Positions 993 to 14,889 of a stretch of 64,000 nucleotides of DNA are shown in pieces. The notes beneath the pieces are model-generated. The model searched no databases and was not told the DNA's origin. It saw nothing but the letters and a program-made list of their open reading frames with translations. Every line of letters begins with the position of its first letter. The first letter of the stretch is position 1. The position numbers and the translations under genes are program-made. Source of the DNA: Natribaculum luteum (lineage in GTDB: Archaea > Halobacteriota > Halobacteria > Halobacteriales > Natrialbaceae); the NCBI RefSeq assembly GCF_023008545.1, contig NZ_CP095397.1, forward strand, positions 2,170,001 to 2,234,000. The letters run 5' to 3'.

Positions 993-1457
993 TCAGACTT
1001 CCCGAACGCCGATGACGCGATCCTGGAGGTACGGGAGGTGCATCGCGTTGTAGACGATCTTGACCTCGTCGGTCGTCGGGACCGCCTGACACGTCAGGAT
1101 GATGTTCTTCTCCTCGACTTCCTCCTCGGTGAGGATGAGGTCCATGTCCATCGACACCTCGCCTTCGCGCAGGATAGCGGCGCAGTTCGCACACGACGCG
1201 GCGCGACACTCGAAGGGCCAGTCGTAGCCGTTGTCTTCAGCTGCGTCGAGGATGTACCGGTTTTTCGCCACCTCGAAGCGCCCGTAATCCGTCGGATCGA
1301 GGTCCGCCACCGCAGCCTTCTCGAAGAGGTCGTCGTCGTCCAGTCGCCAGCCACGTTCGTCCAGTACCTCGTAGTTGAGATACTCGAGCGTGCGCGTGTC
1401 CCCGTCGTCCCCCTCAGCGTCACGGCCGACGCGAATGTTGGGCAAGTCCGTTGACAT
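993..1457 (-). CDS. Haloarchaeal 2Fe-2S ferredoxin
   Basis: A 154-residue plant-type ferredoxin. It carries the haloarchaeal N-terminal acidic extension (residues 25-65) followed by the [2Fe-2S] ligands in CRAASCANC and a fourth Cys in IILTCQAVP, then the conserved C-terminal motif [21 protein letters not shown]. In this family the protein carries single electrons, for example from 2-oxoacid:ferredoxin oxidoreductases, in the cytoplasm. The canonical family motif is CRAGACANC; here it reads CRAASCANC, so loop residues differ but all Cys ligands are present. It is transcribed alone, with its start at an ATG ending a 40-base AT-richer leader. Confidence 0.93.
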
Positions 1458-2914: not shown

Positions 2915-4165
2915 ATGCGCACGCGTACCTTCTGGGCACTCGACGACGAGGACGAGGACGTCGTCGAGCGGCTGGCGGCCGGGCTCGGGGCCGACGCCGG
3001 CCGGGTCCTCGCGTACCTGCTGTTGCGTGCCGACCGCGAGCGCGAACCGGCGACGACCGTCCACCTCCGGATCGGGACCCGACTGAACCGGGCGGCTGTC
3101 GTCGACGCCGTCGAGCGACTCGAGTCCGTCGGACTGCTCGAGCGCACGCACGTTCGAGACGACGATCCCGGTCGCCCGCCGACGGCGTGGCGACCCGTCG
3201 GCGACCCCGAGTCGGCCGTCCGCTGTGCGTACGAACGCCACGCGGACGAGTTGCTCGACCGGGCTGCTGATCACGCGGGGATCGAGGATGACCGTTCCGG
3301 GTCGACGACCGGCGACCTCACCGTCGCGTTGAACTGGCGGCCGAACGGGCTCCACCTCCCCGTCTACGCCGGCGAGACGGCGGGGTGGTACGACGAGTTC
3401 GGCGTCGACGTGACCGTCGACCACTACGAGGGATCGCGACGCGCTCTCGAGCGGGTCACCGCCGGCGACGCAGACGTCGGCGTCGTCGGTGCCGCGACGG
3501 TCGCCCGCGCACGAGCGACGGACGTCCCGGTCGTTCCGATCGCGGTCCTCTACCAGCGGGCGATGACCGTCCTCTACACCGTCCGCGAGGCGTTCGGCGA
3601 GCCGCTGCGGAGCGTCGAGCAGCTGCAGGGGCGGCGGATCGGCATGCCGCCGAACTCCGAGACGCGGGTGCTCGGTCGGCTCTTCCTCTCGCAGACGGCG
3701 TTCGCCGACGACATCCGAATCGTCGACACGACCGGCGAGGAACGGGACGCGCTGCTCGCGGGCGAGGCGGACGTCGTGACCGGGTCGATCACCGATCCAC
3801 GACAGCTTGAGCGGCAGGGGAGAACGGTCGACACGCTCCCCATCACGGATCACTTCCCCATCTACGGGCCGACGGTGATCGTTCGCGAGGACGTCCTCGT
3901 CGATCGGGCCGCGGCGCTCGCGGGCTTTCTCGCCGGAACGACGGCCGGCTGGGCCGACGCGCGATGCGACCCGGAGCCGGCCACAGCGCGGGTCGCCGCG
4001 GTGGCCGACGACGAACCGGCGTCGATCCGGCGGACGTTCGAGCGGGCGGCCTCGAGATTCGGCGAGAGCGACGCCATGCGCGAACGCGGCTGGGGGTGGC
4101 AGCGCCAGGAGATGTGGGATCGACTCCGAATCGCACTCGGACAGGGGCGACTGCTCGACGAATGA
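2915..4165 (+). CDS. Winged-helix / NMT1-type substrate-binding domain fusion, probable ligand-sensing regulator
   Basis: A 416-residue two-domain protein. Residues 15-100 form a winged helix: helices around GRVLAYLLLR and TRLNRAAVVDAVERLESVGLLER, then a basic wing. Residues 112-415 are an NMT1/THI5-like periplasmic-binding fold opening with LTVALNWRPNGLHLPVYAGE and containing the typical ADVGVVGAATVARA and QGRRIGMPP segments. There is no signal peptide, so the binding domain faces the cytoplasm, as expected for a one-component transcription factor. The gene overlaps the ATPase gene by ATGA, and the downstream transporter suggests autogenous control of uptake; this is inference. The ATG at 2915 lies about 28 bases after a TTAT element, consistent with a leaderless message. 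Confidence 0.85.
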   Translation: MRTRTFWALDDEDEDVVERLAAGLGADAGRVLAYLLLRADREREPATTVHLRIGTRLNRAAVVDAVERLESVGLLERTHVRDDDPGRPPTAWRPVGDPESAVRCAYERHADELLDRAADHAGIEDDRSGSTTGDLTVALNWRPNGLHLPVYAGETAGWYDEFGVDVTVDHYEGSRRALERVTAGDADVGVVGAATVARARATDVPVVPIAVLYQRAMTVLYTVREAFGEPLRSVEQLQGRRIGMPPNSETRVLGRLFLSQTAFADDIRIVDTTGEERDALLAGEADVVTGSITDPRQLERQGRTVDTLPITDHFPIYGPTVIVREDVLVDRAAALAGFLAGTTAGWADARCDPEPATARVAAVADDEPASIRRTFERAASRFGESDAMRERGWGWQRQEMWDRLRIALGQGRLLDE

Positions 4166-4911
4166 TCGAACTCGACGACGTCACGGTGGCGTTCGAGGAC
4201 TTCACCGCGATCGCGGACGTCGACCTCTGCGTCAGCGGAGACGAGTTCGTCACCGTGGTCGGCCCGTCTGGCTGCGGAAAGACGACGCTCCTGCGGACGA
4301 TTGCCGGACTGCAGGAGCCGACGACCGGCACCGTCCGCATCGACGGACGGCCACCTGACGTCGCCCAGGCGAACGCCGACGTCGGGTTCGTCTTCCAGCA
4401 ACACACCCTGTTGCCGTGGAAGAGCGCACTCGAGAACGTGGTGTTCCTCCGGACGATGGCCGACGACCCGCCGGAGCGAGAGCGGGCGCGGGCGTTGCTC
4501 GCGTCGATGGGGCTCGAGGGGTTCGAGGACGCGCGCCCGCAGGCGCTGTCCGGCGGGATGAAACAGCGCGTCGCGATCGCCCGCGCCATCCACCTCGGCG
4601 CGGACGTCCTCCTGCTGGACGAACCGTTCGGCGAACTCGACGAGATCACCCGCGACGAACTCGGCGTCGAGATCAGAGCGCTCTGGCGGCGCGAACGGAA
4701 GACCGTCGTGTTCGTCACCCACAGCGTCCCCGAGGCGGTGTTCCTCGCCGACCGCTGCGTCGTGATGGGCGGACAGCCGGGACGGATCCAGCGGACGTTC
4801 GAGGTCGACCTGCCGACGCCGCGCGACGAGGAAGTGTTCGGCTCGAGCGCGTTCCAGCGCCAGGTCGCCGCGGTGCGACGGACGTTACACGAAACCCATG
4901 GCCACGAGTGA
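4162..4911 (+). CDS. ABC transporter ATP-binding protein, SsuB/ThiZ/TauB type
   Basis: A 249-residue nucleotide-binding subunit. Walker A is GPSGCGKTT (about residues 34-42), the Q-loop is FVFQQHTLLPW, the signature is LSGGMKQR, Walker B is VLLLDEPFGELDE and the switch His lies in VTHSV. The LLPWKSALENV motif is typical of the nitrate/sulfonate/taurine/thiamine-precursor subfamily. ATG at 4162 overlaps the stop of the preceding regulator gene by four bases; longer upstream starts would only translate a shadow of that gene. It is the only ATPase in the cluster although two permeases are present. Confidence 0.93.
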   Translation: MIELDDVTVAFEDFTAIADVDLCVSGDEFVTVVGPSGCGKTTLLRTIAGLQEPTTGTVRIDGRPPDVAQANADVGFVFQQHTLLPWKSALENVVFLRTMADDPPERERARALLASMGLEGFEDARPQALSGGMKQRVAIARAIHLGADVLLLDEPFGELDEITRDELGVEIRALWRRERKTVVFVTHSVPEAVFLADRCVVMGGQPGRIQRTFEVDLPTPRDEEVFGSSAFQRQVAAVRRTLHETHGHE

Positions 4912-5677
4912 ACGCGTTCGCGCCGCCGCGGCGGACGTGCTCTACCCGGCGAGCGCGCTCTGTGTGGGCATCGCGCTCTGGTGGACGATCGTGACGTTCG
5001 CGGACGTTCCGTCGTTCGTGTTGCCGTCGCCGCGGGCCGTCGCCGCCCAGCTCCTGGGAAATCCGACGCTGTACGCGCACAACGCCTGGAACACGCTCGA
5101 GAAGGTCGTCTACGGGGGTGCCGTGGGTGTCCTCGCTGGATTCCTGCTGGCGGCGTTCGTCGCGTACGTCCCGTGGTTTCGGCGGGCGATCTACCCCTCG
5201 CTCGTGACGGTCAGGGTGTTGCCGAAACTCGCGATCGCGCCGTTGCTTCTGATCTACCTGGGGACGGGAACGACGACGGCGACCGTGTTCGTCGCGCTCG
5301 TCACGTTCTTCCCGCTCGTGTTGAGCACGGCGGCGGGACTCGACCGGGCACCGGCGGAGCACCACGACCTGTTGCGGTCGGTAAACGCCAGCACGCTCGA
5401 GCGGATCGCGTACGTGGACGTCCCCTACGCCCTGCCGGACGTCTTCGCCGGGCTCAAGCAGTCGGTGACGCTCGCAGTCGTCGGAGCCGTCGTCGCCGAG
5501 TGGGTCGTCGCGGACGACGGCCTCGGATTCATTATCCTCCTGGGTTCGGAGAACGTCCGTCCCGAGGTCATGCTCGCGGCGCTCGTCGTCCTGTTGCTTG
5601 AGGGACTCGCCCTCTACGGCGTCGTCGTGCTCGCACAGCGCGGCGTCCTCCGGTGGGTGGGTCTCGAGTTCGAGTGA
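4898..5677 (+). CDS. ABC transporter permease, SsuC/ThiX type
   Basis: A 259-residue inner-membrane permease with about six hydrophobic segments and the BPD_transp_1 coupling region (NASTLERIAYVDVPYALPDVFAGLK), plus the N-terminal PSFVLPSPRAVAAQL signature of the nitrate/sulfonate/THI5 uptake subfamily. It overlaps the ATPase gene by 14 bases. Its stop lies four bases from the stop of the second permease gene on the other strand, so the two transcription units converge with no spacer. It would pair with the ATPase and probably the lipoprotein encoded at 6565-7692. Confidence 0.93.
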   Translation: MATSERVRAAAADVLYPASALCVGIALWWTIVTFADVPSFVLPSPRAVAAQLLGNPTLYAHNAWNTLEKVVYGGAVGVLAGFLLAAFVAYVPWFRRAIYPSLVTVRVLPKLAIAPLLLIYLGTGTTTATVFVALVTFFPLVLSTAAGLDRAPAEHHDLLRSVNASTLERIAYVDVPYALPDVFAGLKQSVTLAVVGAVVAEWVVADDGLGFIILLGSENVRPEVMLAALVVLLLEGLALYGVVVLAQRGVLRWVGLEFE

Positions 5678-5681
5678 TCCC

Positions 5682-6515
5682 TTACGCCCGCCAGAACGCG
5701 CGTTCGGCGGCGACGGGGAGAACGTAAAAGCCCACGCCGAGCCCCGAGAGGACGACGAGGGCGGCGTAGGTCTCGGCCGTTCGGAGGTACGCCGCGGTGT
5801 CGAACACACGGTAGCCCAGCCCCGCCTCGAGCGTGACGAACTCCGCGACGACGGCACCGACGACGGAAAGCGTCGCGGCGATCTTGAACCCGGCGAACAC
5901 GCTCGGCGCGGCGGCGGGGACGCGCACGCGAAGGAAGACGGCGGTCCGCGACGCGCCGACGGTGCGCGCGAGATCGAGGTACGACTCCGGCGTGCTCCGG
6001 AGTCCGTCGACCGCGGCGATCGTGATCGGGAAGACGGTCAGCGTCGTCACGAGCAGCGCCCGGGCCAGCACGCCCCGGCCGAACCAGAGAAACAGGAGCG
6101 GGGCGACGGCGATCAGGGGGGCGATGCGCAACGCGACCACGTAAGGCAACAGCGTCCGCGTCGCCGCCCGCGAGTAGGTCATCGCGAACGCGAGGACGAA
6201 CCCGACCGTCCCACCGGCGAGCAATCCGAGGCCCGCGGTGAGCCCCGTGACCGCGGCGTCCTCGAGCAGCGTCGGATACGTCTCGGCGAGCGCCTCGAGG
6301 ACCTCGAGTGGCGACGGGAGGATCAGCGTCGGCATGTCGGAGACCACGACGGCGGCGTGCCACGCGAGGAGGACGACTGCGAGGACGGCGACCGGCGGAA
6401 ACGCACGACTCGTCGCGGCGAGGCCGACGTCGACGACGCTCTGTCCCCTCCGTCGAGCGAGCGAGGGAACGTCCACGCGTGGTCGGCCGTGTCGGTCTCC
6501 GCGTCCGTCGCTCAT
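5682..6515 (-). CDS. ABC transporter permease, second paralogue
   Basis: A 277-residue permease of the same subfamily as the one ending at 5677. It has a polar N-terminus, then LPSPLEVLEALAETYP, five or six hydrophobic segments and the coupling loop RTVGASRTAVFLRVRVPAAAPSVFAGFK. The ATG at 6515 lies 49 bases after the stop of the upstream lipoprotein gene, so the two are probably co-transcribed. A longer frame upstream has no coding character. No separate ATPase accompanies it; sharing the ATPase of the convergent unit, or forming a heteromeric permease, is inferred. Confidence 0.9.
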   Translation of the reverse strand: MSDGRGDRHGRPRVDVPSLARRRGQSVVDVGLAATSRAFPPVAVLAVVLLAWHAAVVVSDMPTLILPSPLEVLEALAETYPTLLEDAAVTGLTAGLGLLAGGTVGFVLAFAMTYSRAATRTLLPYVVALRIAPLIAVAPLLFLWFGRGVLARALLVTTLTVFPITIAAVDGLRSTPESYLDLARTVGASRTAVFLRVRVPAAAPSVFAGFKIAATLSVVGAVVAEFVTLEAGLGYRVFDTAAYLRTAETYAALVVLSGLGVGFYVLPVAAERAFWRA

Positions 6516-6564
6516 CGTCTCTCGTCTCCGCGTTCCGGTCGTGACCGGGCCGTTCGAACGCGAT

Positions 6565-7692
6565 TCATTCTTCGACCAGTTCCGCGTAGTCGGCGACGTA
6601 CTCGTACTCTGCGTCGAGATACTCGTTCGTCCACACGTTGTTCGGGTCGACGTCACCCTCGAGGACGTCGCCGTCGGCCAGCACCTCGTGCGTTCGTTCC
6701 CACGGGTCGGCGGCGCTGAACCCCCAGCCGTTCTCGCGCACCGTCTCCGAGGTCATGTACTCGCCGTGCATGACGCCCCACTTGTCGGCCTGGTTCTCGC
6801 GGACCTCCTCGAGTTCTGGCTGGACGTCGACGAGGAGGTCGATCGCCTCGTCCGGGTTCTGGCTCGCCCAGACGGCACCCCTGGCCGTCGCCCGGAGGAA
6901 CGCCCGGACGGTGTTCGGGTTCGCATCGCCGAAGTCCTTCTCGGTGGCCACGAGGTGGCCGTACGACGGAATCGCGTCCGCGATCGGGAGAACGTCGATC
7001 TCGCCGCCCTGGTGTTCGGCGTCGACGACGTCGCCGAAGACGCCCCCCGCGGCGTCGATCTCGCCACCGAGCAGTTGCTGGACGGTGTCGAACCCGGTGT
7101 CGACGTACTCGACGCTCTCGAGGATCCCGTGGGAGTCGAGAAACGCCTGCGTCATCTGGCGGACCATGCCGGGGCCGCTCCCGACCGTGGCACCGTCTAA
7201 CTGCTCGGCGTCGGCGAGTTCGCCGAACTGCTTGCGACTGGCGAAGACGACGTTCGGATTCCGTTGCATGACGATGCCGACCGCGAGCGGCGAGAGTCCT
7301 CGACTGTTGACGTTGAGGATCTGGTCGCTGCTCGAGATCGCGAACTCGACGTTGCCGAGACCGGCCTGGTTGGCCGCAAAGTCGGAGCCGTCGCCGCTCT
7401 CGATCTCGACCGCCTCGAAGCCCTCCTCCTCGTAGAAGCCGTTCTCGTCGGCCGCGACGTACGGCGCGTGGAGGCCGCTTATGTTCCAGTTGAGCAACAG
7501 GGAGACGGACTCGACTTCGGGTCCGTCCGCCGTGTCGTCGCCCACGTCGTTTGGCTCGTTGTCGTTCGGCTCGCCGTCGCTCCCGAACCTCCCGGTACAG
7601 CCGGCGACGGCGACCCCACCGGCGACCGCCAGAAATCCCCGTCGCGTGTTGCGCGCCGCCCTCTCCCCACGCCCTGTGTGAATGCGTGTCAC
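6565..7692 (-). CDS. Tat-exported substrate-binding lipoprotein, NMT1/THI5 type
   Basis: A 375-residue extracellular solute receptor. The N-terminus has twin arginines (NTRRGFLAVAGG) and a lipobox ending at Cys32 (VAGC), so it is a Tat-exported, lipid-anchored protein. An acidic linker (residues 35-58) leads into the binding domain, which opens with VSLLLNWNISGLHAPYVAAD and contains QLLGGEIDAAGG and ANPNTVRAFLRATARG. A GTG at 7692 is chosen because the TATA-like element at 7724-7733 would place transcription start near 7703; the upstream ATG at 7749 lies before that promoter. This is the only member of the cluster built as a classical receptor. The ligand is unknown; thiamine-precursor pyrimidines are one known substrate class of this fold. 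Confidence 0.92.
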   Translation of the reverse strand: MTRIHTGRGERAARNTRRGFLAVAGGVAVAGCTGRFGSDGEPNDNEPNDVGDDTADGPEVESVSLLLNWNISGLHAPYVAADENGFYEEEGFEAVEIESGDGSDFAANQAGLGNVEFAISSSDQILNVNSRGLSPLAVGIVMQRNPNVVFASRKQFGELADAEQLDGATVGSGPGMVRQMTQAFLDSHGILESVEYVDTGFDTVQQLLGGEIDAAGGVFGDVVDAEHQGGEIDVLPIADAIPSYGHLVATEKDFGDANPNTVRAFLRATARGAVWASQNPDEAIDLLVDVQPELEEVRENQADKWGVMHGEYMTSETVRENGWGFSAADPWERTHEVLADGDVLEGDVDPNNVWTNEYLDAEYEYVADYAELVEE

Positions 7693-7723
7693 TCTTTCAC
7701 CGTCACCAACTGTCCACGAAGGC

Positions 7724-7733
7724 GTATAAAAAT
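7724..7733 (-). promoter_or_regulatory. TATA box for the lipoprotein gene
   Basis: Minus-strand ATTTTTATAC about 35 bases upstream of the GTG start. It separates the lipoprotein-permease unit from the upstream VOC/SBP operon and decides the start codon. Confidence 0.6.
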
Positions 7734-7782
7734 CATTTGCGAAAATCATTATAAGGAGCGGGACCGACTCCTGCCGACCGCG

Positions 7783-8214
7783 TCACACGTCGTCGTGCGT
7801 GAGCAACGGCCGGTCGCGCTCCGCTCGTGGCGGATCGTACGTGACCACCTCGAGGAGGTTGCCGTCGGGGTCGAGGAAGTAGAAGCCCTCGAACTCGCCC
7901 CAGTCGTACGGTCCCTGCTTCGGGAACTGGCCGTCGAGGTCGTCGACGAACTCGTCGTACCGCTCGCGCGAGCTCTCGAACGCGAGGTGGCCCTTGTCGA
8001 GGGGATGCTCGAGGTCCGCGGGCGACCACCCGTCGGCGCGTCCCGTCTCGACGAGCGTCACGACGGTCTCGCCGACCTCGAACATGGCATGCTCGCCCTG
8101 GAAGTCCTCCGGCGGGCGCAGCAACGACAGTCCGAGGACGTCCCGGTAGAACTCGTAGCACGCCTCGAGGTCGTCGACGTCGACGTTCACGTGGTCGACG
8201 GCGCGTGCGGTCAT
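7783..8214 (-). CDS. VOC-fold (glyoxalase/dioxygenase superfamily) enzyme
   Basis: A 143-residue vicinal-oxygen-chelate protein with paired beta-alpha-beta-beta-beta modules. His8 (VDHVNV), His76 (GHLAF) and Glu122 (NLLEVV) match metal ligands of the superfamily, which covers glyoxalases, extradiol dioxygenases and resistance proteins. The motif DPDGNLLEV is typical. The start ATG overlaps the stop of the upstream SBP-like gene by ATGA, so it is the last gene of a four-gene unit. A metal enzyme at the end of an SBP-fold operon suggests chemistry on the imported compound; the reaction is unknown. Confidence 0.88.
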   Translation of the reverse strand: MTARAVDHVNVDVDDLEACYEFYRDVLGLSLLRPPEDFQGEHAMFEVGETVVTLVETGRADGWSPADLEHPLDKGHLAFESSRERYDEFVDDLDGQFPKQGPYDWGEFEGFYFLDPDGNLLEVVTYDPPRAERDRPLLTHDDV

Positions 8215-9182
8215 CGCCACCGCCCCGCACGTTCGGCATAGTCGCGGATCGCCGGCGCGTCCGCGTCGAGGTACTCGTTCGTCCAGGCGGCGTCTGGATC
8301 GATCTCGCCCTCGAGCAGGTCGGTCTCCGCGAGCGTCTCGCCGAGCCGTCGCCAGCGGTCGCCGTCGTGGTTCCCCCACCCCGTCTCCGCGACGTGCGGG
8401 GTGACCTGGAGGTCGCCGGCGGCCGCCTCGAACTTCTCGCGTTCGATCTCCCGGCGGCGCTCGAGCGTGGCGTTGCGCGAGACCAGCGCGTCGACGGCCG
8501 CCTCCGGTTCCCGCGACGCCACAGCCCAGCCGCGGGCGGTGGCGCGGAGGAACGCCCGCACCGTCTCGGGATTATCGGCCGCGAACGACGGCTCCGTCAC
8601 GAGTGTCATCCCGTAGACGCCCAGGTGCTCCCCGATCGGGAGTTCGTCCGCCGGCCGGTCGTGGTCGCGCTCGAGTTCGAGGCCGTTGGTGACGACGCCG
8701 ACCGCCGCGTCGACGTCCCCGTCGAGCAGCTGGTGCTCGACGCGGTGGTGGGTGTGCGGGTCGACGTCCCGGAGGTCGACCTCGTCGCGAATTCCGGCGT
8801 TCTCGAGCAACTGGGCGGCGAGGATGCGCGTCTTCGTCGCCGAGGGGGCGACGGTCCGTCCGGCGAGGTCTTCCGGCTGCTCGAGCGGTTCGCCGAAGAC
8901 GTCCCGCAGCGTGTAGATCGCCGCCGGGGTCTTCGCCGTCACTGCCGCGACGGCCAGCGGCTCGAGTCCGCGGCTCCGGACGGAGAGGACGGCGCTGGCA
9001 CCTGCGAGCGCGAACGTGGCCGCACCTCGAGCGGCCTGCTCGGCGGCGAACGGAGAGCCGTGTCCCTCGACGAACCGAACCTCGAGTCCCTCCTCGTCGT
9101 AGAAACCCCGCTCGCGTGCGAGGAAGTACGGGGCCTGGAAGCCGTTGGGTTCCCAGTTGAGCTGGAAGGTGATCGATTCCAC
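8211..9182 (-). CDS. Signal-less NMT1/THI5-like SBP-fold protein (C)
   Basis: A 323-residue protein that begins directly at the first strand of the fold (VESITFQLNWEPNGFQAPYF), leaving no room for a signal peptide or lipobox. It has ERGFYDEEGLEVRFVEG, LAGRTVAPSATKTRI, DPHTHHRVEHQLLDGDVDAAVG and a C-terminal DAAWTNEYLDAD that resembles the lipoprotein's NNVWTNEYLDAE, showing close paralogy. The GTG at 9182 starts six bases after the upstream stop. It may be a cytosolic binding protein or an enzyme using this fold, as in THI5 or dihydroxyphthalate decarboxylase-like proteins. Function not assignable. Confidence 0.85.
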   Translation of the reverse strand: MESITFQLNWEPNGFQAPYFLARERGFYDEEGLEVRFVEGHGSPFAAEQAARGAATFALAGASAVLSVRSRGLEPLAVAAVTAKTPAAIYTLRDVFGEPLEQPEDLAGRTVAPSATKTRILAAQLLENAGIRDEVDLRDVDPHTHHRVEHQLLDGDVDAAVGVVTNGLELERDHDRPADELPIGEHLGVYGMTLVTEPSFAADNPETVRAFLRATARGWAVASREPEAAVDALVSRNATLERRREIEREKFEAAAGDLQVTPHVAETGWGNHDGDRWRRLGETLAETDLLEGEIDPDAAWTNEYLDADAPAIRDYAERAGRWR

Positions 9183-9187
9183 GGCGA

Positions 9188-10180
9188 TCAGACCTCCAGG
9201 CGGAACGTGTCGTCGGGGATGCGATCGACGCCGAGGGCGTCGGCTCCCGCGACCTCGAGCAGGTGGTCGAACAGCCGTTCCATCCCGGCGACCGTCTCCT
9301 CGTCCCAGTCGGCGACGACCATGTCCCGCCAGCCGTCGCGGACGGCGCGGACGACGGCGTCGTCGTCCTCGTACATCAGCCGCTCGCCGATCTCCGTCCA
9401 GATCTCGTCGTCGGTCGTGAGTCGTTCGACGGCGTCCCGGTACGCGCCCGTGAATCCGTGGACCGCCTCCCGGTTCTCCGCGAGGTAGTTCTCGCTCGTG
9501 AGGAACGTCGAGATCGGCAACTTCCGGTCGGTTTCCGAGAGGTCCTGGACGAGCCGGGACATCGGGAGCACCTCGTGGTAGTCGCCCGTCTCGGTGATCT
9601 CGGGAACGATGGGCCAGAACTGGAGGATTGCGTCGACTTCCCCGTCCCGGAGCATGCGGGTGAGTTCGACCTTCGATCCCGACTCGACCGGCATCGCCTC
9701 GTCGTCGGGGTCGAAGCCGTGGTACTCGCGACACGCCGCGCGAACCAGGATCCAGTTTTTGTCCAGCCGGCGGACGACGCCGATGCGCCGGCCCGGCAGA
9801 TCCGTCAGATCCTCGATCGGCGAGTCCGTCGGCGCGACGAGCCCCCCGACCGTCCGGCCGTACGGGTGAACGGCGACGATCGGTGCGCCCTCGGCCCGCT
9901 CGCGCGCCGTCGAGATGTAGTCGATGTCGATGAGGTCGGCCTCGCCTCCCTGTAACTTCGCCTCGACGGTCTCGACGCCGCCCTCGAGTTCGTCCGAGAC
10001 GAGTTGCACGTCGAGGTGGAAGTCGTGATCGTGGTCGTACCCGAACCGTTTGATCGTGTAGAGCATGTACCGGGGGCTGCCGTTGTGCTCGAATCGCGCT
10101 CGTAACATGGGCCGGTCTCCCGGATCGTCGTGGTGGGCGTCCAGTTCGACCTGCTGGGTCTCGAGGTCTACTGCCTCCAT
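9188..10180 (-). CDS. Signal-less SBP-fold protein (B)
   Basis: A 330-residue protein. The first 25 residues are acidic and polar (MEAVDLETQQVELDAHHDDPG), not a signal peptide. The fold follows with LRARFEHNGSPRYMLYTIKRF, LQGGEADLIDIDYISTARE, DLPGRRIGVVRR and MLRDGEVDAILQFWP. Compared with its neighbours it is divergent, with a His/Asp-rich YDHDHDFHLDVQ segment near residues 50-60. The ATG at 10180 is five bases after the upstream stop. Similarity to 4,5-dihydroxyphthalate decarboxylase-like members of the fold is possible but cannot be tested by eye. Confidence 0.82.
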   Translation of the reverse strand: MEAVDLETQQVELDAHHDDPGDRPMLRARFEHNGSPRYMLYTIKRFGYDHDHDFHLDVQLVSDELEGGVETVEAKLQGGEADLIDIDYISTARERAEGAPIVAVHPYGRTVGGLVAPTDSPIEDLTDLPGRRIGVVRRLDKNWILVRAACREYHGFDPDDEAMPVESGSKVELTRMLRDGEVDAILQFWPIVPEITETGDYHEVLPMSRLVQDLSETDRKLPISTFLTSENYLAENREAVHGFTGAYRDAVERLTTDDEIWTEIGERLMYEDDDAVVRAVRDGWRDMVVADWDEETVAGMERLFDHLLEVAGADALGVDRIPDDTFRLEV

Positions 10181-10185
10181 GGGAC

Positions 10186-11082
10186 TCACCCGAGCGAAGC
10201 GACGATGGCGTCGAGGTCTGCCTCGCCGTCGATGAGGCCGCGGTCTTTCATCCACTCGAGTTGCGCACCGAGATCGTCCCGGTCGGCGGGTTCCGGCACC
10301 TCGTAGCGCGGAACCGTCACGCGCTCGCGAAGTTTTGCCACGTCCACGTCCTCGAAGAGGTCGGGCGCGACCTCGAGGTCCTTCTCGAGCATCTCGAGGT
10401 ACTCCTCGCGGAACGCTTCCGGGTTCTCGTTGACGTCACGGGCGGCGCGGGTGTAGGCAGCGACGTACGACTCGAGGACGTCGCGGTCGACGTCGTCGCC
10501 GCCGACGATCCCCACGTGGTTCTCGAACTCGAGGATCGGCTGGAAGCCGAGGGACTCCGCGAGCGTGCTCTGTGGGTCGAGCAGCGTCACGGCGTCGACC
10601 TCGCCGTCCCGGAGCGCGCGCAGGCGATCGGTCGGCATCCCGTAGTGGACGAGGCGCACCTCCTCGGGATCGACGTGCTCCTCGAGCGCTCGCATCGCGG
10701 TGTACTCCTGGCCGGTTCGGCGGTTGACGGCGACCGGGACGTCCGCGAGGTCCGCCGGCGACTCGATCGACGTCTCCGGGTGGGTGAACACCGTGTACGG
10801 CTGGTCGGCGAAGGTGCCGTTCGCGACGACCCGCCCGTCGTCCATTCGCCACGTTCGCCTGAGGCTCTCCCACTTGCACACCGGGTAGATGTCCACCTCG
10901 TAGTCGCCGGTCAGCGTCTCCTCGGCGGGGATGTACTTTACCTCGACGGACCGCCGGTCGCGCTCGACCAGGTCGACCTCGAGTCCCTCCGCCTCGAAGT
11001 AGCCCCGTTCGGCCGCCACCCGCTGCGGGAGGACGAACGAGAACGGGAGGTGAAACAATCTGAGTGAGGCATTCTCTGTCAT
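10186..11082 (-). CDS. Signal-less SBP-fold protein (A), first gene of the operon
   Basis: A 298-residue protein opening MTENASLRLFHLPFSF, so again without export signal. Fold markers are AERGYFEAEGLEVDLVER, ADVPVAVNRRTGQEYTAMRAL, LRALRDGEVDAVTLLDPQ and a helical C-terminal half. It leads the tight unit A-B-C-VOC on the minus strand, divergent from the cupin. ATG 11082 is preferred over GTG 11100 because the CCTTTAT element at 11111-11117 predicts transcription start near 11088. No catalytic residues can be named. Confidence 0.83.
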   Translation of the reverse strand: MTENASLRLFHLPFSFVLPQRVAAERGYFEAEGLEVDLVERDRRSVEVKYIPAEETLTGDYEVDIYPVCKWESLRRTWRMDDGRVVANGTFADQPYTVFTHPETSIESPADLADVPVAVNRRTGQEYTAMRALEEHVDPEEVRLVHYGMPTDRLRALRDGEVDAVTLLDPQSTLAESLGFQPILEFENHVGIVGGDDVDRDVLESYVAAYTRAARDVNENPEAFREEYLEMLEKDLEVAPDLFEDVDVAKLRERVTVPRYEVPEPADRDDLGAQLEWMKDRGLIDGEADLDAIVASLG

Positions 11083-11110
11083 GCGCTCGTCGCTAATCAC
11101 GAACGGACTG

Positions 11111-11139
11111 ATAAAGGTTTCTCGAGAATTTTTATATGA
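11111..11139. promoter_or_regulatory. Divergent promoter region of SBP operon and cupin
   Basis: Minus-strand TATA-like CCTTTAT (11111-11117) serves the SBP operon; plus-strand TTTTTATATG (11129-11138) serves the cupin. The two lie within 30 bases, so a single regulator could control both. Confidence 0.5.
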
Positions 11140-11175
11140 GTCGTCGTGGACAGGGCGATAGTGAGGTATGCTACC

Positions 11176-11517
11176 ATGGACAGGGTAAGTACCGGGGACA
11201 CGACGTTCGACGAGGTTGCGGAGGGAGTGTACCTCGCCGACCTGGCGACCGGGCGGCGGGCCTGCGTGAAGTACTGGCGGATCGAATCCGGCGCGACGCT
11301 ACCCGTACACCGGCACGACAACGAACAGATCGGCTACGTCCTCGACGGGACGCTGGTCGCGCTGGTCGAGGGCGAGGAGGTCACGCTCTCGCCCGGCGAC
11401 TGCTACCGGTTCCCGAGTGGGGAACGCCACGGTGCCGAGAACCGGTCCGACGAACCCGCGATCGGGATCGGCGTGCTCGCACCGCCGCGCGAGCAACCCG
11501 ACTGGCGGGAAACATAG
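11176..11517 (+). CDS. Single-domain cupin
   Basis: A 113-residue small cupin. Motif 1 is PVHRHDNEQIGYVLDG with His45, His47 and Glu50; motif 2 is PSGERHGAEN with His85; together they form a plausible metal site. Such cupins serve as oxygenases, isomerases or sensing domains. The ATG at 11176 is taken because the TATA element at 11129 puts the transcript start near 11160, excluding the GTG at 11146. It is divergent from the SBP operon and shares its promoter region, which suggests a role in the same pathway. Confidence 0.85.
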   Translation: MDRVSTGDTTFDEVAEGVYLADLATGRRACVKYWRIESGATLPVHRHDNEQIGYVLDGTLVALVEGEEVTLSPGDCYRFPSGERHGAENRSDEPAIGIGVLAPPREQPDWRET

Positions 11518-11597: not shown

Positions 11598-13760
11598 CTA
11601 AGTATCGAACCTGGCGTCGCCCGCCGTCGTCGGTTCGACCACCTCGAGTGCTCGTTCGAAGTGGGCCGCAGTGAGCACGAGGTCCTCGAGGGTTCGCGCG
11701 TCGGTGACGTACTCCTCGATGGCCGCCGTGGCGGCCTCGCGACAGATCGCCTCGACGTCCGCGCCGACGTAGCCGTCGGTCTCGCCCGCCAGTCGCTCGA
11801 GGTCGACGTCCGCGGCCAGGGGCTTGGCTGCGGTGTGGACCTCGAAGATCGCCAGCCGAGCCTCCTCGTCCGGAACCGGCACGTGGACGTGTCGGTCGAA
11901 CCGACCCGACCGGAGCAAGGCGTCGTCGAGGAGGTCGGGGCGATTGGTCGTCGCGACGACGACGACGTCCTCGAGGGTCTCGAGGCCGTCGAGTTCGGTC
12001 AGCAGTTGCGAGACGACGCGCTCGCCGACTCCTGCGTCGGCGGCGCTCCGACCGCGTTCTCCCGCCAGCGCGTCGATCTCGTCGAAGAAGACCACCGTCG
12101 GCGCGTTCTCGCGGGCCTTCGAGAAGACCTCGCGAACGCCCCGTTCTGACTCGCCGACGAACCTGTTCAGTAACTCCGGCCCCTTGATCGAGATGAAGTT
12201 CGACTGAGCCTCGTTCGCGACCGCCTTCGCGAGCAGCGTCTTGCCCGTGCCGGGCGGACCGTAGAGCAACACGCCTTTCGCGGGCGAGAGGTCGACCCGC
12301 TCGTACGCGTCGGGGTGCTCGAGGGGCCACTGGACGGTCTGGCGCAGCCGTCGTTTCACGTCCTCGAGGCCGCCGACGTCGTCCCACGAGACGTCCGGCA
12401 CCTCGACGAACACCTCGCGCAACGCCGAGGGTTCGACGCCCGTGAGCGCGTCCCGGACGTCGCGATCCGTCACCTCGAGGTCGACGTCGGCGACGTCTGC
12501 CGGCGTCACCTCGAGGTCGTCGCCGGGACGCACCCGCCGGAGCGCGCTCATCGCACTCTCCCTGACGAGGTGCTCGAGGTCGGCCCCGACGAACCCGTGG
12601 GTGATCTCGGCGTAGCGCTCGATGTCGACGTCGTCGGCCAGTGGCACGTCTCGGGTGTGGATCCGGAGGATCTCCTCGCGGCCCTGCGCGTCGGGAACGC
12701 CGACCTCCACCTCGCGGTCGAACCGGCCGGGGCGGCGCAACGCGGGATCGACGACGTGTTCCCGGTTGGTCGTTCCGACGACGGCGACGCGTTTTCGGTC
12801 TCGCACGCCGTCGAGCAGCGAGAGCAACTGGGCGACGATCCGGCTCTCGGCGTCGCCGCCGGATCCGTCCCGCGTCGGCGCGATGGAGTCGAGTTCGTCG
12901 ACGAAGACGACCGCCGGTGCGTTCGCCTCGGCCTCCGCGAAGACCTCCCGGAGGCGCTGTTCGCTCTCGCCGTAGTACTTCGACGTGATCTCCGGCCCCG
13001 AGATCGTCTGGAAGTGCGCGTCGATCTCGTTTGCGACGGCGCGGGCCATCAGCGTCTTGCCGGTCCCCGGCGGGCCGTAGAGCAGGACGCCTGAAGGTGG
13101 ATCGACGCCGAGCGCGTCGAACAGGCCCGGGTGCTGAAGAGGAAGCTCGATCAGCTCGCGCACTCGCTCGAGTTCCGCCTCGAGGCCGCCGACGTCCTCG
13201 TAGGTGACGGCGGGTCGGTCCGTCGACTCGTCTGTGAGCCCCTGTGCGGGCTCTTCGTCGACGGTGATGGCCGTCCAGTCGCGGACGACCGCGGGACCGT
13301 TCGAGTCGGTCCCCGTCACGCGGACCGGTACCTGGCGGCTCGCCTCCGCTGGCAGAGAGCCGTAGCCGAGCGCGACCGAGAGCACCTGGCCGTCGACGAC
13401 TCCTCGTCCGACGAGGGCGTCCCTGACGTGCAGGCCGACGCCTTCCTCGACGCCGACGTCCTCGGGCAGGGCGATCGTGACCCGATCCGCGTCGGTCACG
13501 TCGACGGCGTCGACTGCGACGCGGTCGTCGACCGCCACTCCGAGGTTCCGACGGAGTCGCTCCGGGAGCCGGACGTGACCGCGTTCGGCGTCGCCGGTGC
13601 CGACCCTCGCGACGGCCCGTCGATCGTCGCTCTCGAGGAGCACCCAGTCGCCGACCTCGACCCCCAGTTCCCGTCTCGCGTCGCGATCGAGGACGACCGC
13701 TCCCTCGTCGACCCGTCCTCGTCCGGGCGTGACACCAAGTTCCAGGCTATTAGTTTTCAC
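11598..13760 (-). CDS. CDC48/VCP-family AAA ATPase
   Basis: A 720-residue double-AAA unfoldase. The N-terminal double-psi beta-barrel plus 4-beta domain (residues 1-185; VTPGRGRVDEGAVVLDRDARRE) precedes D1 (Walker A GPPGTGKTLMARAVANE; Walker B VVFVDELDS) and D2 (GPPGTGKTLLAKAVANE; VVFFDEIDA). In archaea this hexamer extracts and unfolds proteins for degradation. Haloarchaea usually carry several paralogues; this one has a short acidic C-terminus without an HbYX tail. The start ATG 13760 begins MKTNSLELGV at the first barrel strand. Confidence 0.95.
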   Translation of the reverse strand: MKTNSLELGVTPGRGRVDEGAVVLDRDARRELGVEVGDWVLLESDDRRAVARVGTGDAERGHVRLPERLRRNLGVAVDDRVAVDAVDVTDADRVTIALPEDVGVEEGVGLHVRDALVGRGVVDGQVLSVALGYGSLPAEASRQVPVRVTGTDSNGPAVVRDWTAITVDEEPAQGLTDESTDRPAVTYEDVGGLEAELERVRELIELPLQHPGLFDALGVDPPSGVLLYGPPGTGKTLMARAVANEIDAHFQTISGPEITSKYYGESEQRLREVFAEAEANAPAVVFVDELDSIAPTRDGSGGDAESRIVAQLLSLLDGVRDRKRVAVVGTTNREHVVDPALRRPGRFDREVEVGVPDAQGREEILRIHTRDVPLADDVDIERYAEITHGFVGADLEHLVRESAMSALRRVRPGDDLEVTPADVADVDLEVTDRDVRDALTGVEPSALREVFVEVPDVSWDDVGGLEDVKRRLRQTVQWPLEHPDAYERVDLSPAKGVLLYGPPGTGKTLLAKAVANEAQSNFISIKGPELLNRFVGESERGVREVFSKARENAPTVVFFDEIDALAGERGRSAADAGVGERVVSQLLTELDGLETLEDVVVVATTNRPDLLDDALLRSGRFDRHVHVPVPDEEARLAIFEVHTAAKPLAADVDLERLAGETDGYVGADVEAICREAATAAIEEYVTDARTLEDLVLTAAHFERALEVVEPTTAGDARFDT

Positions 13761-13980: not shown

Positions 13981-14889
13981 ATGACTAACACACAGATAAC
14001 AGACGAAGCTCAACGGCAGCTGGTCCGGAACCTCGGGATGAGCCAGGTTCCGGAAGAGGGCCGGTTGACGCTCGAGCGAATTCGGGAGTCGGTAGACGCC
14101 GAGACCGACCCCGAGTTCGCTTCGATGGGGGTGTCGATCCGACGTGACCTCTCGGGCAAACTCGACGAGTCGTTGCTCGAGGAGGAACTCGGGAAGCTGG
14201 CGACGCAGATCGAACGGCTTCCCGATGTCCGCGAGGCGGGGATCCCGGACGGTGAGACGGAGCCAGAACAGTTGTATCGCGAACTCGTCGCTCCGGGCTG
14301 GCGCGTCTACGACCATCTCGTGGACGTCGGATTCTTCGAGAGCGTCGAAGACAGCCTGCCGCGGTTCACACCGGAACACATCGAACACACTGCACACGAG
14401 CTGATCCGGACGGAGCCGCTTACGTCCGAACTCTCGACGATCGGGTTCGACGAGCGCGAGAAGCTGGTGCTGGTGATGAACGTCGTGAACAACAACACGC
14501 GACTGGCGCGGTGGGTACCGACGAAGGAGATTCCGGAGGAGGTCGAGTTCGACGTCGAGCACGTGCCGCCACTTCACCAGCGGGCCATGGGGGGTGCGTT
14601 GCTGTGGATCAACGCGCTCGACGTCCACCTCTGGCAAAATCGGATCCTCGTCACCGACGAGATCCTCGACGACGGCTACTCGGACGTCAAGGCGATGCTC
14701 GGCGGGCTGTACGCGATGACGAAGGCCGCACTCGACGTCGCCGAGGACGGACCGCTGACCGACGCACAGCTGACCGCCGCGCTGACCGCCAGTGCGGCGA
14801 TCACGATCGTCAACCAGGAAGAGATCTGCAAGGACGTCTTCTGGATCACGGAAGACATGCGTGCGCCGAGCAAGGCGCGACCGAGGTGA
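13981..14889 (+). CDS. Unknown protein linked to the quinoprotein gene
   Basis: A 302-residue soluble, helix-rich, acidic protein with no recognised domain. It contains FDEREKLVLVMNVVNNNTR, a conserved-looking HQRAMGGALLWINALDVHLWQN segment near residues 200-220 and an Ala-rich helical tail. No Cys-rich metal motif, signal peptide or membrane segment is visible. It precedes the PQQ-type dehydrogenase gene by seven bases, so the two are certainly co-transcribed; a partner, chaperone or electron acceptor role is possible but unsupported by motif. Confidence 0.75.
   Translation: MTNTQITDEAQRQLVRNLGMSQVPEEGRLTLERIRESVDAETDPEFASMGVSIRRDLSGKLDESLLEEELGKLATQIERLPDVREAGIPDGETEPEQLYRELVAPGWRVYDHLVDVGFFESVEDSLPRFTPEHIEHTAHELIRTEPLTSELSTIGFDEREKLVLVMNVVNNNTRLARWVPTKEIPEEVEFDVEHVPPLHQRAMGGALLWINALDVHLWQNRILVTDEILDDGYSDVKAMLGGLYAMTKAALDVAEDGPLTDAQLTAALTASAAITIVNQEEICKDVFWITEDMRAPSKARPR

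What the first reader, a model, noticed from the sequence alone, without database searches (positions are those of the whole stretch)
2915..11517. ABC-type cluster with five paralogous SBP-fold proteins in three different roles
Seen: one NMT1/THI5-like domain fused to a winged helix, one as a Tat lipoprotein, three without any signal peptide, all in one cluster with one ATPase, two permeases, a VOC enzyme and a cupin. A normal importer needs one receptor. Inference: the fold has been recruited for sensing, capture and intracellular processing of the same ligand, an uptake-sense-process system not matched by any named system I know.
Basis: partly seen in the sequence, partly recalled or inferred. 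Interest (0 to 1): 0.85.

Follow-up and report, generated by a model that had tools for sequence, protein, structure and literature searches.

The report
Haloarchaeal PQQ-cofactor supply gene cluster
Five binding-protein-like genes in a salt-loving archaeon turn out to be two neighbouring modules, both tied to an alcohol-oxidising enzyme that uses the rare cofactor PQQ, and they probably sense, import and handle that cofactor in cells where the known genes for making it were not found.

Summary
The five NMT1/THI5-fold proteins, ATPase, two permeases, VOC protein and cupin are all there. They are not one importer with five receptors but two modules that meet in this genome. Module I (SBP1 regulator, ATPase, two permeases, Tat lipoprotein SBP2) accompanies a PQQ-type quinoprotein dehydrogenase (QPR, 14896-16614): its permease lies within 20 kb of a quinoprotein in 39 of 42 haloarchaeal genomes. 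Module C (signal-less SBP5-SBP4-SBP3, VOC, cupin) is in 48 of 371 genomes; 46 of these have QPR, against 15 of 323 others. SBP4 is closest to PqqT, the bacterial PQQ-binding protein (Z 27.9, next 19.7), keeps its Lys142 in 58 of 58 copies, and has bacterial relatives beside PQQ dehydrogenases, but shows no signal peptide. SBP1-3 are paralogues; SBP4 and SBP5 are separate subfamilies. PqqC was found in 0 of 59 genomes, PqqE over cut-off in 0 of 48. No QPR genome lacks both modules, but this is weak after allowing for kinship. Best reading: PQQ sensing and uptake (I) plus intracellular PQQ handling or supply (C). Ligands and QPR's location are untested.

The parts
2915..4165 (+). SBP1: N-terminal probable winged helix fused to an NMT1/THI5 domain; probable ligand-sensing regulator (module I)
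   Evidence: PF09084 2.4e-30; MarR_2 sub-threshold; beside the importer in core+ and core- genomes, though not at every importer
4162..4911 (+). ABC transporter ATPase (module I)
   Evidence: PF00005 1.1e-33
4898..5677 (+). ABC permease 1 (module I)
   Evidence: PF00528 2.9e-19; within 20 kb of a quinoprotein in 39 of 42 genomes
5682..6515 (-). ABC permease 2 (module I; start not certain)
   Evidence: PF00528 3.2e-24
6565..7692 (-). SBP2: Tat lipoprotein receptor of the importer (module I; start not certain)
   Evidence: PF09084 4.2e-33; Tat-like motif plus lipobox
7783..8214 (-). VOC-fold metalloprotein (module C)
   Evidence: PF00903 5.9e-10; H8, H76, E122 in at least 97% of 46 copies
8211..9182 (-). 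SBP3: signal-less NMT1/THI5-fold protein, sister of SBP2 (module C)
9188..10180 (-). SBP4: signal-less relative of PqqT (module C)
   Evidence: D140-K141-N142-W143 in 58 of 58
10186..11082 (-). SBP5: signal-less SBP-fold protein with a conserved Cys-x-Trp (module C)
11176..11517 (+). cupin, divergent from SBP5 (module C; a GTG start at 11146 is possible)
   Evidence: PF07883 1.6e-20; H45, H47, E50, Q51, H85 in at least 97% of 49 copies
11598..13760 (-). Cdc48-like AAA ATPase, recurrent neighbour of c9/QPR
   Evidence: in the stretch at 7 of 44 core loci
13981..14889 (+). c9: conserved unknown directly upstream of QPR
   Evidence: no Pfam or PDB match; beside QPR at 18 of 21 loci, at the other three the stretch ends there
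14896..16614 (+). QPR: quinoprotein alcohol-dehydrogenase-type enzyme with Asp-x-Asp motif and no signal peptide
   Evidence: PF01011 2.8e-57, TIGR03075 373 bits; ligand positions 24 of 24; frame opens two codons before the ATG
993..1457 (-). [2Fe-2S] ferredoxin, recurrent neighbour
   Evidence: PF00111; also in the Natrinema and Halomarina plasmid blocks
2500..2799 (-). DUF4242/SCO4226-like small protein, recurrent neighbour
   Evidence: PF14026

Best explanation
The locus senses, imports and handles PQQ (or a PQQ-metal complex) for a PQQ-dependent alcohol dehydrogenase in haloarchaea in which PqqC and PqqE were not found. Shown by sequence: a quinoprotein with PQQ and metal ligand positions kept, including the Asp-x-Asp signature of lanthanide enzymes; an ABC importer module physically tied to it; a signal-less module whose SBP4 has PqqT as its nearest solved relative. 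Inferred: SBP2 with the ATPase and two permeases imports the cofactor, SBP1 senses it and controls the genes, and in the cytosol SBP4 holds PQQ with the help of its conserved lysine while SBP3, SBP5, VOC and cupin receive, modify or regenerate it before it is loaded into QPR. Because 21 of 61 quinoprotein genomes have module C and no such importer, and none lacks both, module C may give the enzyme its cofactor by a second route.
For: QPR: PF01011 2.8e-57; best PDB sequences are quinoprotein ethanol dehydrogenase 6zcv/6zcw, then methanol dehydrogenase 4mae; 24 of 24 copies keep C151-C152, R157, E219, N279, D322, D324, K352, W404, W486. Module C and QPR: 46 of 48 against 15 of 323 genomes; by genus 13 of 14 against 6 of 69, p 6.6e-10; a 47th genome (G163) has a split quinoprotein. 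QPR lies within 10 kb of SBP5 at 21 of 44 loci. Module I and QPR: 40 of 42 genomes, 39 of 42 within 20 kb. SBP4: PqqT entries are the top sequence hits (1.8e-26) and top fold hits (Z 27.9, 27.7, 27.2; next 19.7). K141 aligns with PqqT K142 and is in 58 of 58. Annotated bacterial relatives: PQQ dehydrogenase within 8 kb in 5 of 7. PqqC 0 of 59, PqqE over cut-off 0 of 48; both ring in two bacterial plasmids.
Against: No ligand has been measured. SBP2 and SBP3, the import-side proteins, are not in the PqqT subfamily, so their ligand could be something else. A Tat-signal blue-copper protein (PF00127 in the copy scanned) lies beside QPR at 4 loci, and a Tat-signal protein without Pfam match at 7: QPR may work outside the cell although it has no signal peptide. 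G037 has module C and only weak partial quinoprotein matches. The either/or pattern (25 both, 15 importer only, 21 core only, 0 neither; p 0.001) falls to p 0.052 when collapsed by genus, and a within-genus shuffle gives 0 in half of trials. Cytosolic binding proteins alone cannot replace an importer. Aldehyde and molybdopterin oxidoreductases beside the core fit a catabolic role equally well. The models are of middling confidence (pLDDT 69 and 70).
Confidence: 0.52

Rival explanations
1. Module C is a catabolic enzyme set for the product of QPR (an aldehyde or acid): the SBP-fold proteins act as enzymes or carriers, like DszB or dihydroxyphthalate decarboxylase, with VOC and cupin as metal enzymes.
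For: An aldehyde:ferredoxin oxidoreductase lies in 13 of 44 core loci, in seven of them between cupin and VOC; a molybdopterin oxidoreductase (formate-dehydrogenase-like by recall) in 10, an aldehyde dehydrogenase in 2 and directly after VOC in L007. SBP5 has a Cys-x-Trp kept across haloarchaeal and two bacterial signal-less relatives. DszB and dihydroxyphthalate decarboxylase are among the fold hits of SBP4, DszB among those of SBP5.
Against: It does not explain why SBP4 belongs with PqqT and keeps its lysine. These oxidoreductases are missing from the stretches around many core loci, and different ones appear in different genera.
Confidence: 0.25
2. One reading: one uptake-sense-process system in which all five proteins bind the same ligand (overlaps with the best explanation if that ligand is PQQ).
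For: SBP1, SBP2 and SBP3 are close paralogues in three settings, and the modules are adjacent in the window, L002, L004, L062, L064, L071, L073 and L095.
Against: The modules are separable; SBP4 and SBP5 are of other subfamilies.
Confidence: 0.13
3. Module C makes the cofactor: a route to PQQ or a PQQ-like quinone without the known pqq genes, with SBP-fold enzymes (MqnA/MqnD and Thi5 are precedents, recalled) plus VOC and cupin metal enzymes, SBP4 holding the product.
For: 21 quinoprotein genomes have module C and no module I importer; none of 61 lacks both. The 48 core genomes lack PqqC, and PqqE over cut-off. Putative metal-site residues of VOC and cupin and the SBP5 cysteine are conserved.
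Against: The complementarity is weak after collapsing by genus; another importer may exist; no precursor peptide or radical SAM gene is among the module's genes; 25 QPR genomes have both modules.
Confidence: 0.13
4. The signal-less SBPs are exported as passengers of Tat substrates and act outside as extra receptors or PQQ traps.
For: QPR itself lacks a signal yet has Tat-signal proteins beside it at some loci.
Against: SBP2 is not in the 20-kb stretch at 39 of 44 core loci, and no other family than the core genes is shared by nearly all loci.
Confidence: 0.05

Closest known systems
PqqT, periplasmic PQQ-binding protein of Methylobacterium/Methylorubrum extorquens (PDB 9b1u, 9b1v, 9ooz)
   Same: Nearest solved sequence and fold relative of SBP4 by a wide margin; the lysine known as K142 is kept; bacterial relatives of SBP4 lie with PQQ dehydrogenases in 5 of 7 annotated cases.
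   Different: PqqT is periplasmic; SBP4 shows no signal peptide and is encoded with two more signal-less SBPs, a VOC protein and a cupin. 26-27% identity.
PedH/XoxF-type lanthanide PQQ alcohol dehydrogenases
   Same: QPR shares the propeller family, vicinal cysteines, metal ligand positions and the Asp-x-Asp motif.
   Different: No signal peptide; haloarchaeal; no cytochrome c was annotated in the two haloarchaeal plasmid blocks opened; neighbours are ferredoxin, Tat-signal proteins and unknown c9; scores below NCBI's curated cut-off for TIGR03075.
SsuABC/TauABC/ThiXYZ-type importers (NMT1/THI5 receptor family)
   Same: SBP2, ATPase and permeases have this layout and these Pfam families.
   Different: Two permease genes, a receptor-domain regulator (SBP1), and linkage to a quinoprotein rather than to sulfonate or thiamin genes (the usual settings are recalled).
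SBP-fold cytosolic enzymes (Thi5, MqnA/MqnD, DszB, 4,5-dihydroxyphthalate decarboxylase)
   Same: Precedent (recalled) for signal-less SBP-fold proteins working inside the cell; they appear among the fold hits.
   Different: No catalytic motif of these families was tested in SBP3-5.

Membership tests
PqqT | closest sequence and fold match is PqqT, clearly ahead of other SBPs | tested here: met
   phmmer 1.8e-26 against 2.1e-05 for the next; Z 27.9, rmsd 3.1 over 291 residues against 19.7 for the next
PqqT | lysine equivalent to K142 | tested here: met
   K141 of SBP4 aligns with residue 115 of the chain, which is 142 in 9b1u numbering (offset 27 from the ranges); kept in 58 of 58. PMC12828617 (passages) reports that K142D changes the metal binding of PQQ-loaded PqqT; that the lysine touches PQQ is recalled
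PqqT | exported, with signal peptide | tested here: not met
   0 of 58 SBP4 proteins have a lipobox and the highest 15-residue mean hydropathy near the N-terminus is 0.75; 7 of 7 annotated bacterial relatives begin with a signal-like stretch, judged by eye. No signal-peptide predictor was run
PqqT | binds PQQ | not testable with these tools
   needs a binding assay
PQQ-dependent methanol/ethanol dehydrogenase | PQQ propeller domain | tested here: met
   PF01011 195.2 bits, cut-off 26.7
PQQ-dependent methanol/ethanol dehydrogenase | over NCBI's curated cut-off for TIGR03075 | tested here: not met
   373.4 bits, cut-off 480.05
PQQ-dependent methanol/ethanol dehydrogenase | vicinal cysteines, metal and PQQ ligand positions, catalytic Asp | tested here: met
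   24 of 24; the roles of the residues are recalled except the XoxF aspartate Asp301 (PMC11845868 passage)
PQQ-dependent methanol/ethanol dehydrogenase | exported (periplasmic) enzyme | tested here: not met
   no signal-like stretch in the 21 QPR N-termini inside the stretches read (three of 24 are cut); frame opens only two codons upstream in the window; export by another route not excluded
NMT1/THI5-type ABC importer | exported receptor, permease and ATPase in one cluster | tested here: met
   SBP2, two permeases, ATPase; same set in core-negative genomes
Thi5 / MqnA / MqnD / DszB enzymes | family-specific catalytic residues | not tested
   only fold similarity seen

The most novel reading that the evidence does not exclude
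Module C is an archaeal source of PQQ or a PQQ-like quinone cofactor that does not use the known pqq genes: SBP-fold enzymes with a conserved cysteine (SBP5) and with SBP2's fold (SBP3), plus VOC and cupin metal enzymes, make or remake the quinone in the cytosol, SBP4 (a signal-less PqqT relative) holds it, and it is loaded inside the cell into a signal-less lanthanide-type quinoprotein.
Probability: 0.13. Interest if true: 0.93.

Novelty: new variant of a known kind. Interest (0 to 1): 0.68.

Why it matters
If right, haloarchaea have a PQQ economy: uptake, sensing and an intracellular stage for which I know no bacterial counterpart. It would give a function to a conserved trio annotated only as 'ABC transporter substrate-binding protein' in the records opened, make a lanthanide-type dehydrogenase in hypersaline archaea testable, and raise the question of how species without this importer and without the known pqq genes obtain the cofactor.

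Tried and rejected
Single importer with five receptors: rejected, because module C has no importer in the 20-kb stretch at 39 of 44 loci and module I occurs without module C in 17 of 42 genomes (15 with QPR, 2 without).

Canonical PQQ synthesis in the host: PqqC 0 of 59 (its own control did not ring, so one search was run and rang in 2 of 5 genomes or records); PqqE over cut-off 0 of 48, with partial sub-cut-off matches of 107-111 bits in five. PqqA, B, D and F were not searched. One search covered 11 of the 15 importer-only genomes, none of them.

SBP5 fold search: no family stands out (SsuA Z 20.9, many others 16-18). c9: no Pfam or PDB sequence match; its only NCBIfam match is far below the cut-off.

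Either/or pattern: kept as suggestive only. It falls to p 0.052 by genus and is not informative within genera.

Shared operator: TGTCCAC occurs upstream of four genes of the window block but is not kept elsewhere (cupin 3 of 49, SBP5 4 of 51, SBP1 2 of 9, SBP2 2 of 9, c9 0 of 22, QPR 0 of 24, other genes 30 of 1039); not used as evidence.

Left out of the core count: the divergent SBP5 family (only match in 16 genomes, best E 2.6e-36 to 3.8e-29, and a second match in G226), which has no SBP4 beside it in the 15 loci read, and a weak match in G132 (L102, 1.5e-15). Loci L012-L014 (bacterial) were not used for counts; L012 is in the tree.

Limits: gene calls in other genomes come from my own codon-score ORF finder, which misplaces some starts. 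The class search draws 371 genomes and scores only the best first-look candidates. L002-L011 overlap with G genomes (for example L002 and G137 share coordinates) and are not added to the 44 loci; 6 of the 48 core genomes are not among those 44 loci. In the tree the clades are relative to 72 rows, and the program flags several joins as possible long-branch joins, among them the one that places SBP1 and the one that joins SBP5 to its divergent family. The bacterial loci were taken from the best plasmid hits, not at random.

Literature: searches over the held open-access library; none of the listed titles and abstract starts describes a haloarchaeal PQQ system (one search listed 8 papers, 15 of 88, 15 of 16, 5, 1). 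Passages only were read in PMC12124388, PMC12828617, PMC11996626, PMC11845868 and PMC12942990; no paper was read whole. Subscription papers are not held, and the PqqT original papers were not seen.


Full report
What is in the window. PF09084 (NMT1/THI5) is found above its cut-off in all five SBP-like proteins, and the ATPase, two permeases, VOC protein and cupin are confirmed. I name them SBP1 (2915-4165 +, N-terminal probable winged helix), SBP2 (6565-7692 -, Tat lipoprotein), SBP3 (8211-9182 -), SBP4 (9188-10180 -) and SBP5 (10186-11082 -). The last three show no signal peptide by alignment and hydropathy scan of relatives (no predictor was run). The winged helix is weakly supported. The host is a close relative of Natribaculum breve (SBP5 98% identical).

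Are they paralogues? Pairwise, SBP2 and SBP3 are 42% identical (1.7e-68), SBP1 is 32% identical to SBP3 and 27% to SBP2, while SBP4 and SBP5 match any other only marginally. In a tree of 72 rows SBP1+SBP2+SBP3 are one clade (100/99) with SBP2 and SBP3 as sisters (93/86). SBP4 groups with seven bacterial SBPs (100/98), and SBP5 with a divergent haloarchaeal family and two bacterial signal-less proteins (95/79). The program flags some joins, among them that of SBP1, as possible long-branch joins. So the 'three roles' idea holds for three proteins, not for five.

Two modules. Ten haloarchaeal loci carry cupin/SBP5-SBP4-SBP3-VOC; only L002 and L004 of these also show the importer beside it (L003 ends early). 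In 371 Halobacteria genomes the strong SBP5 matches (worst 1.3e-138) and the SBP4 matches are in the same 48 genomes. At 44 strong loci read from 42 of these genomes, SBP5, SBP4 and cupin are at 44, SBP3 at 42, VOC at 41, and importer genes in the 20-kb stretch at five. The importer permease at E under 1e-60 is in 42 genomes, 25 of them with both module C and QPR, 17 without module C. In the 20 further stretches read around importer or quinoprotein, the set ATPase-permease 1-permease 2-SBP2, mostly with SBP1 and with c9-QPR, recurs with and without module C in the genome. Thus the window joins module I (importer and regulator), module C (signal-less trio, VOC, cupin) and c9-QPR.

The quinoprotein. 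The gene at 14896-16614 is a PQQ-propeller dehydrogenase (PF01011 2.8e-57; TIGR03075 373 bits, below NCBI's cut-off of 480). Its best solved relatives are quinoprotein ethanol dehydrogenase 6zcv/6zcw and methanol dehydrogenase 4mae. In 24 copies the vicinal cysteines, Arg157, Glu219, Asn279, Asp322, Asp324, Lys352, Trp404 and Trp486 are invariant. The extra Asp corresponds by motif to XoxF Asp301, which is not present in MxaF (PMC11845868, passage); the roles of the other residues are recalled. No signal-like stretch is seen in the 21 N-termini that lie inside the stretches, and in the window the frame opens only two codons upstream. A Tat-signal blue-copper protein lies beside it at four loci and a Tat-signal protein without Pfam match at seven (the signal is visible in 4 of 4 and 4 of 7 gene calls), so its location is open.

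Statistical ties. QPR (E up to 1e-60) is in 61 of 371 genomes: 46 of 48 module-C genomes and 15 of 323 others; by genus 13 of 14 and 6 of 69 (p 6.6e-10). The two exceptions are G163, which has a split quinoprotein, and G037, which has only weak partial matches. QPR lies within 10 kb of SBP5 at 21 of 44 loci, in several genera and arrangements. The importer is in 40 QPR genomes and within 20 kb of a quinoprotein in 39 of 42. Of 61 QPR genomes 25 have both modules, 15 only the importer, 21 only module C and none neither (p 0.001). Collapsed by genus and state this is p 0.052, and shuffling within genera gives no 'neither' in half the trials, so kinship could explain it.

SBP4 and PqqT. The only strong solved sequence relatives of SBP4 are three PqqT entries (1.8e-26 to 3.5e-26; next 2.1e-05). 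A predicted model (pLDDT 69) puts the same three on top by Foldseek and VIA-align (Z 27.9, 27.7, 27.2; next 19.7). That 9b1v is PqqT with PQQ and Gd3+ is stated by the PDB title and by PMC12828617 (passages), which also describes the K142D variant. SBP4 Lys141 aligns with chain residue 115, which is 142 in the numbering of 9b1u (offset 27 from the ranges), and D140-K141-N142-W143 are in 58 of 58 copies. Of nine bacterial plasmid relatives opened, two carry no annotation there. Among the other seven, a PQQ dehydrogenase lies within 8 kb in five, quinoprotein-associated genes only in one and neither in one. All seven have signal-like N-termini, judged by eye, and the LDK(S/N)W motif. SBP4 fails PqqT's export feature, so it is described as PqqT-like, not filed as PqqT.

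PQQ synthesis. PqqC was not found in 59 genomes and PqqE is not over cut-off in 48. Both are found in two bacterial plasmids that also carry an SBP4 relative and a PQQ dehydrogenase. If the enzyme holds PQQ, it must then come from outside or by an unknown route.

SBP1 and the quinoprotein. On a Natrinema thermotolerans plasmid an SBP1 orthologue (46% over the full length) stands without the trio within 8 kb, but near a second-type quinoprotein (37% to QPR, PF01011 1.3e-52), a gene annotated plastocyanin with a Tat signal, and a sodium/calcium antiporter. This ties the receptor-domain regulator to quinoproteins.

SBP5, VOC and cupin. SBP5's Cys-x-Trp is kept in 95% or more of 69 sequences, including the divergent haloarchaeal family and two bacterial signal-less relatives. 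VOC keeps H8, H76 and E122 in at least 97% of 46 copies and the cupin H45, H47, E50, Q51 and H85 in at least 97% of 49. By family knowledge (recalled) these look like metal sites, which is why modification or regeneration of the cofactor, and not only binding, is part of the proposal. Neighbouring aldehyde:ferredoxin oxidoreductase (13 of 44), molybdopterin oxidoreductase (10) and aldehyde dehydrogenase genes (2) (Pfam was run on one copy of each) agree with an alcohol-aldehyde-acid oxidation setting and are the main support for the catabolic rival.

Verdict. Best explanation: PQQ sensing, uptake and intracellular handling for a quinoprotein dehydrogenase (0.52). Novelty: new variant of a known kind. 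The bold reading, that module C makes the cofactor, is not excluded (0.13). The paper searches listed nothing on a haloarchaeal PQQ system in the held library; PMC11845868 mentions XoxF/PedH-like genes in marine archaea (passage), so archaeal quinoprotein genes as such are not new.

Noticed in passing
window 1475, 2812, 7711, 11146: The heptamer TGTCCAC (either strand) lies upstream of the ferredoxin gene, of SBP1, of SBP2 and between cupin and SBP5; four of its eight occurrences in 64 kb. Not kept in other genera.
   Followed up: partly
L044-L051, L096-L101, L103: A second signal-less SBP family related to SBP5 (HGVCEWNA motif in 15 of 16 copies), the only SBP5 match in 16 genomes; at 12 of 15 loci read it lies beside an ABC ATPase and permease. 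A bacterial counterpart in Geminicoccaceae (L129) precedes a complete importer.
   Followed up: partly
L059-L061, L074, L077, L084, L085: SBP4 is duplicated in tandem in seven genomes of one genus.
   Followed up: no
L055, L060, L062, L073, L076-L080, L086, L090, L094, L095: An aldehyde:ferredoxin oxidoreductase gene lies beside the cupin or between cupin and VOC (13 of 44 loci).
   Followed up: partly
window 13981-14889 (c9): A conserved 300-residue protein with no Pfam or PDB match stands directly upstream of the quinoprotein (18 of 21 loci; at the other three the stretch ends there).
   Followed up: no
L062, L095, L132, L142: Sodium/calcium exchanger genes recur near the quinoprotein block; possibly metal supply (Ca2+ or Ln3+).
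   Followed up: no
G163:C12:128290-130129: The quinoprotein gene of this core genome is split between reading frames (error or pseudogene).
   Followed up: no
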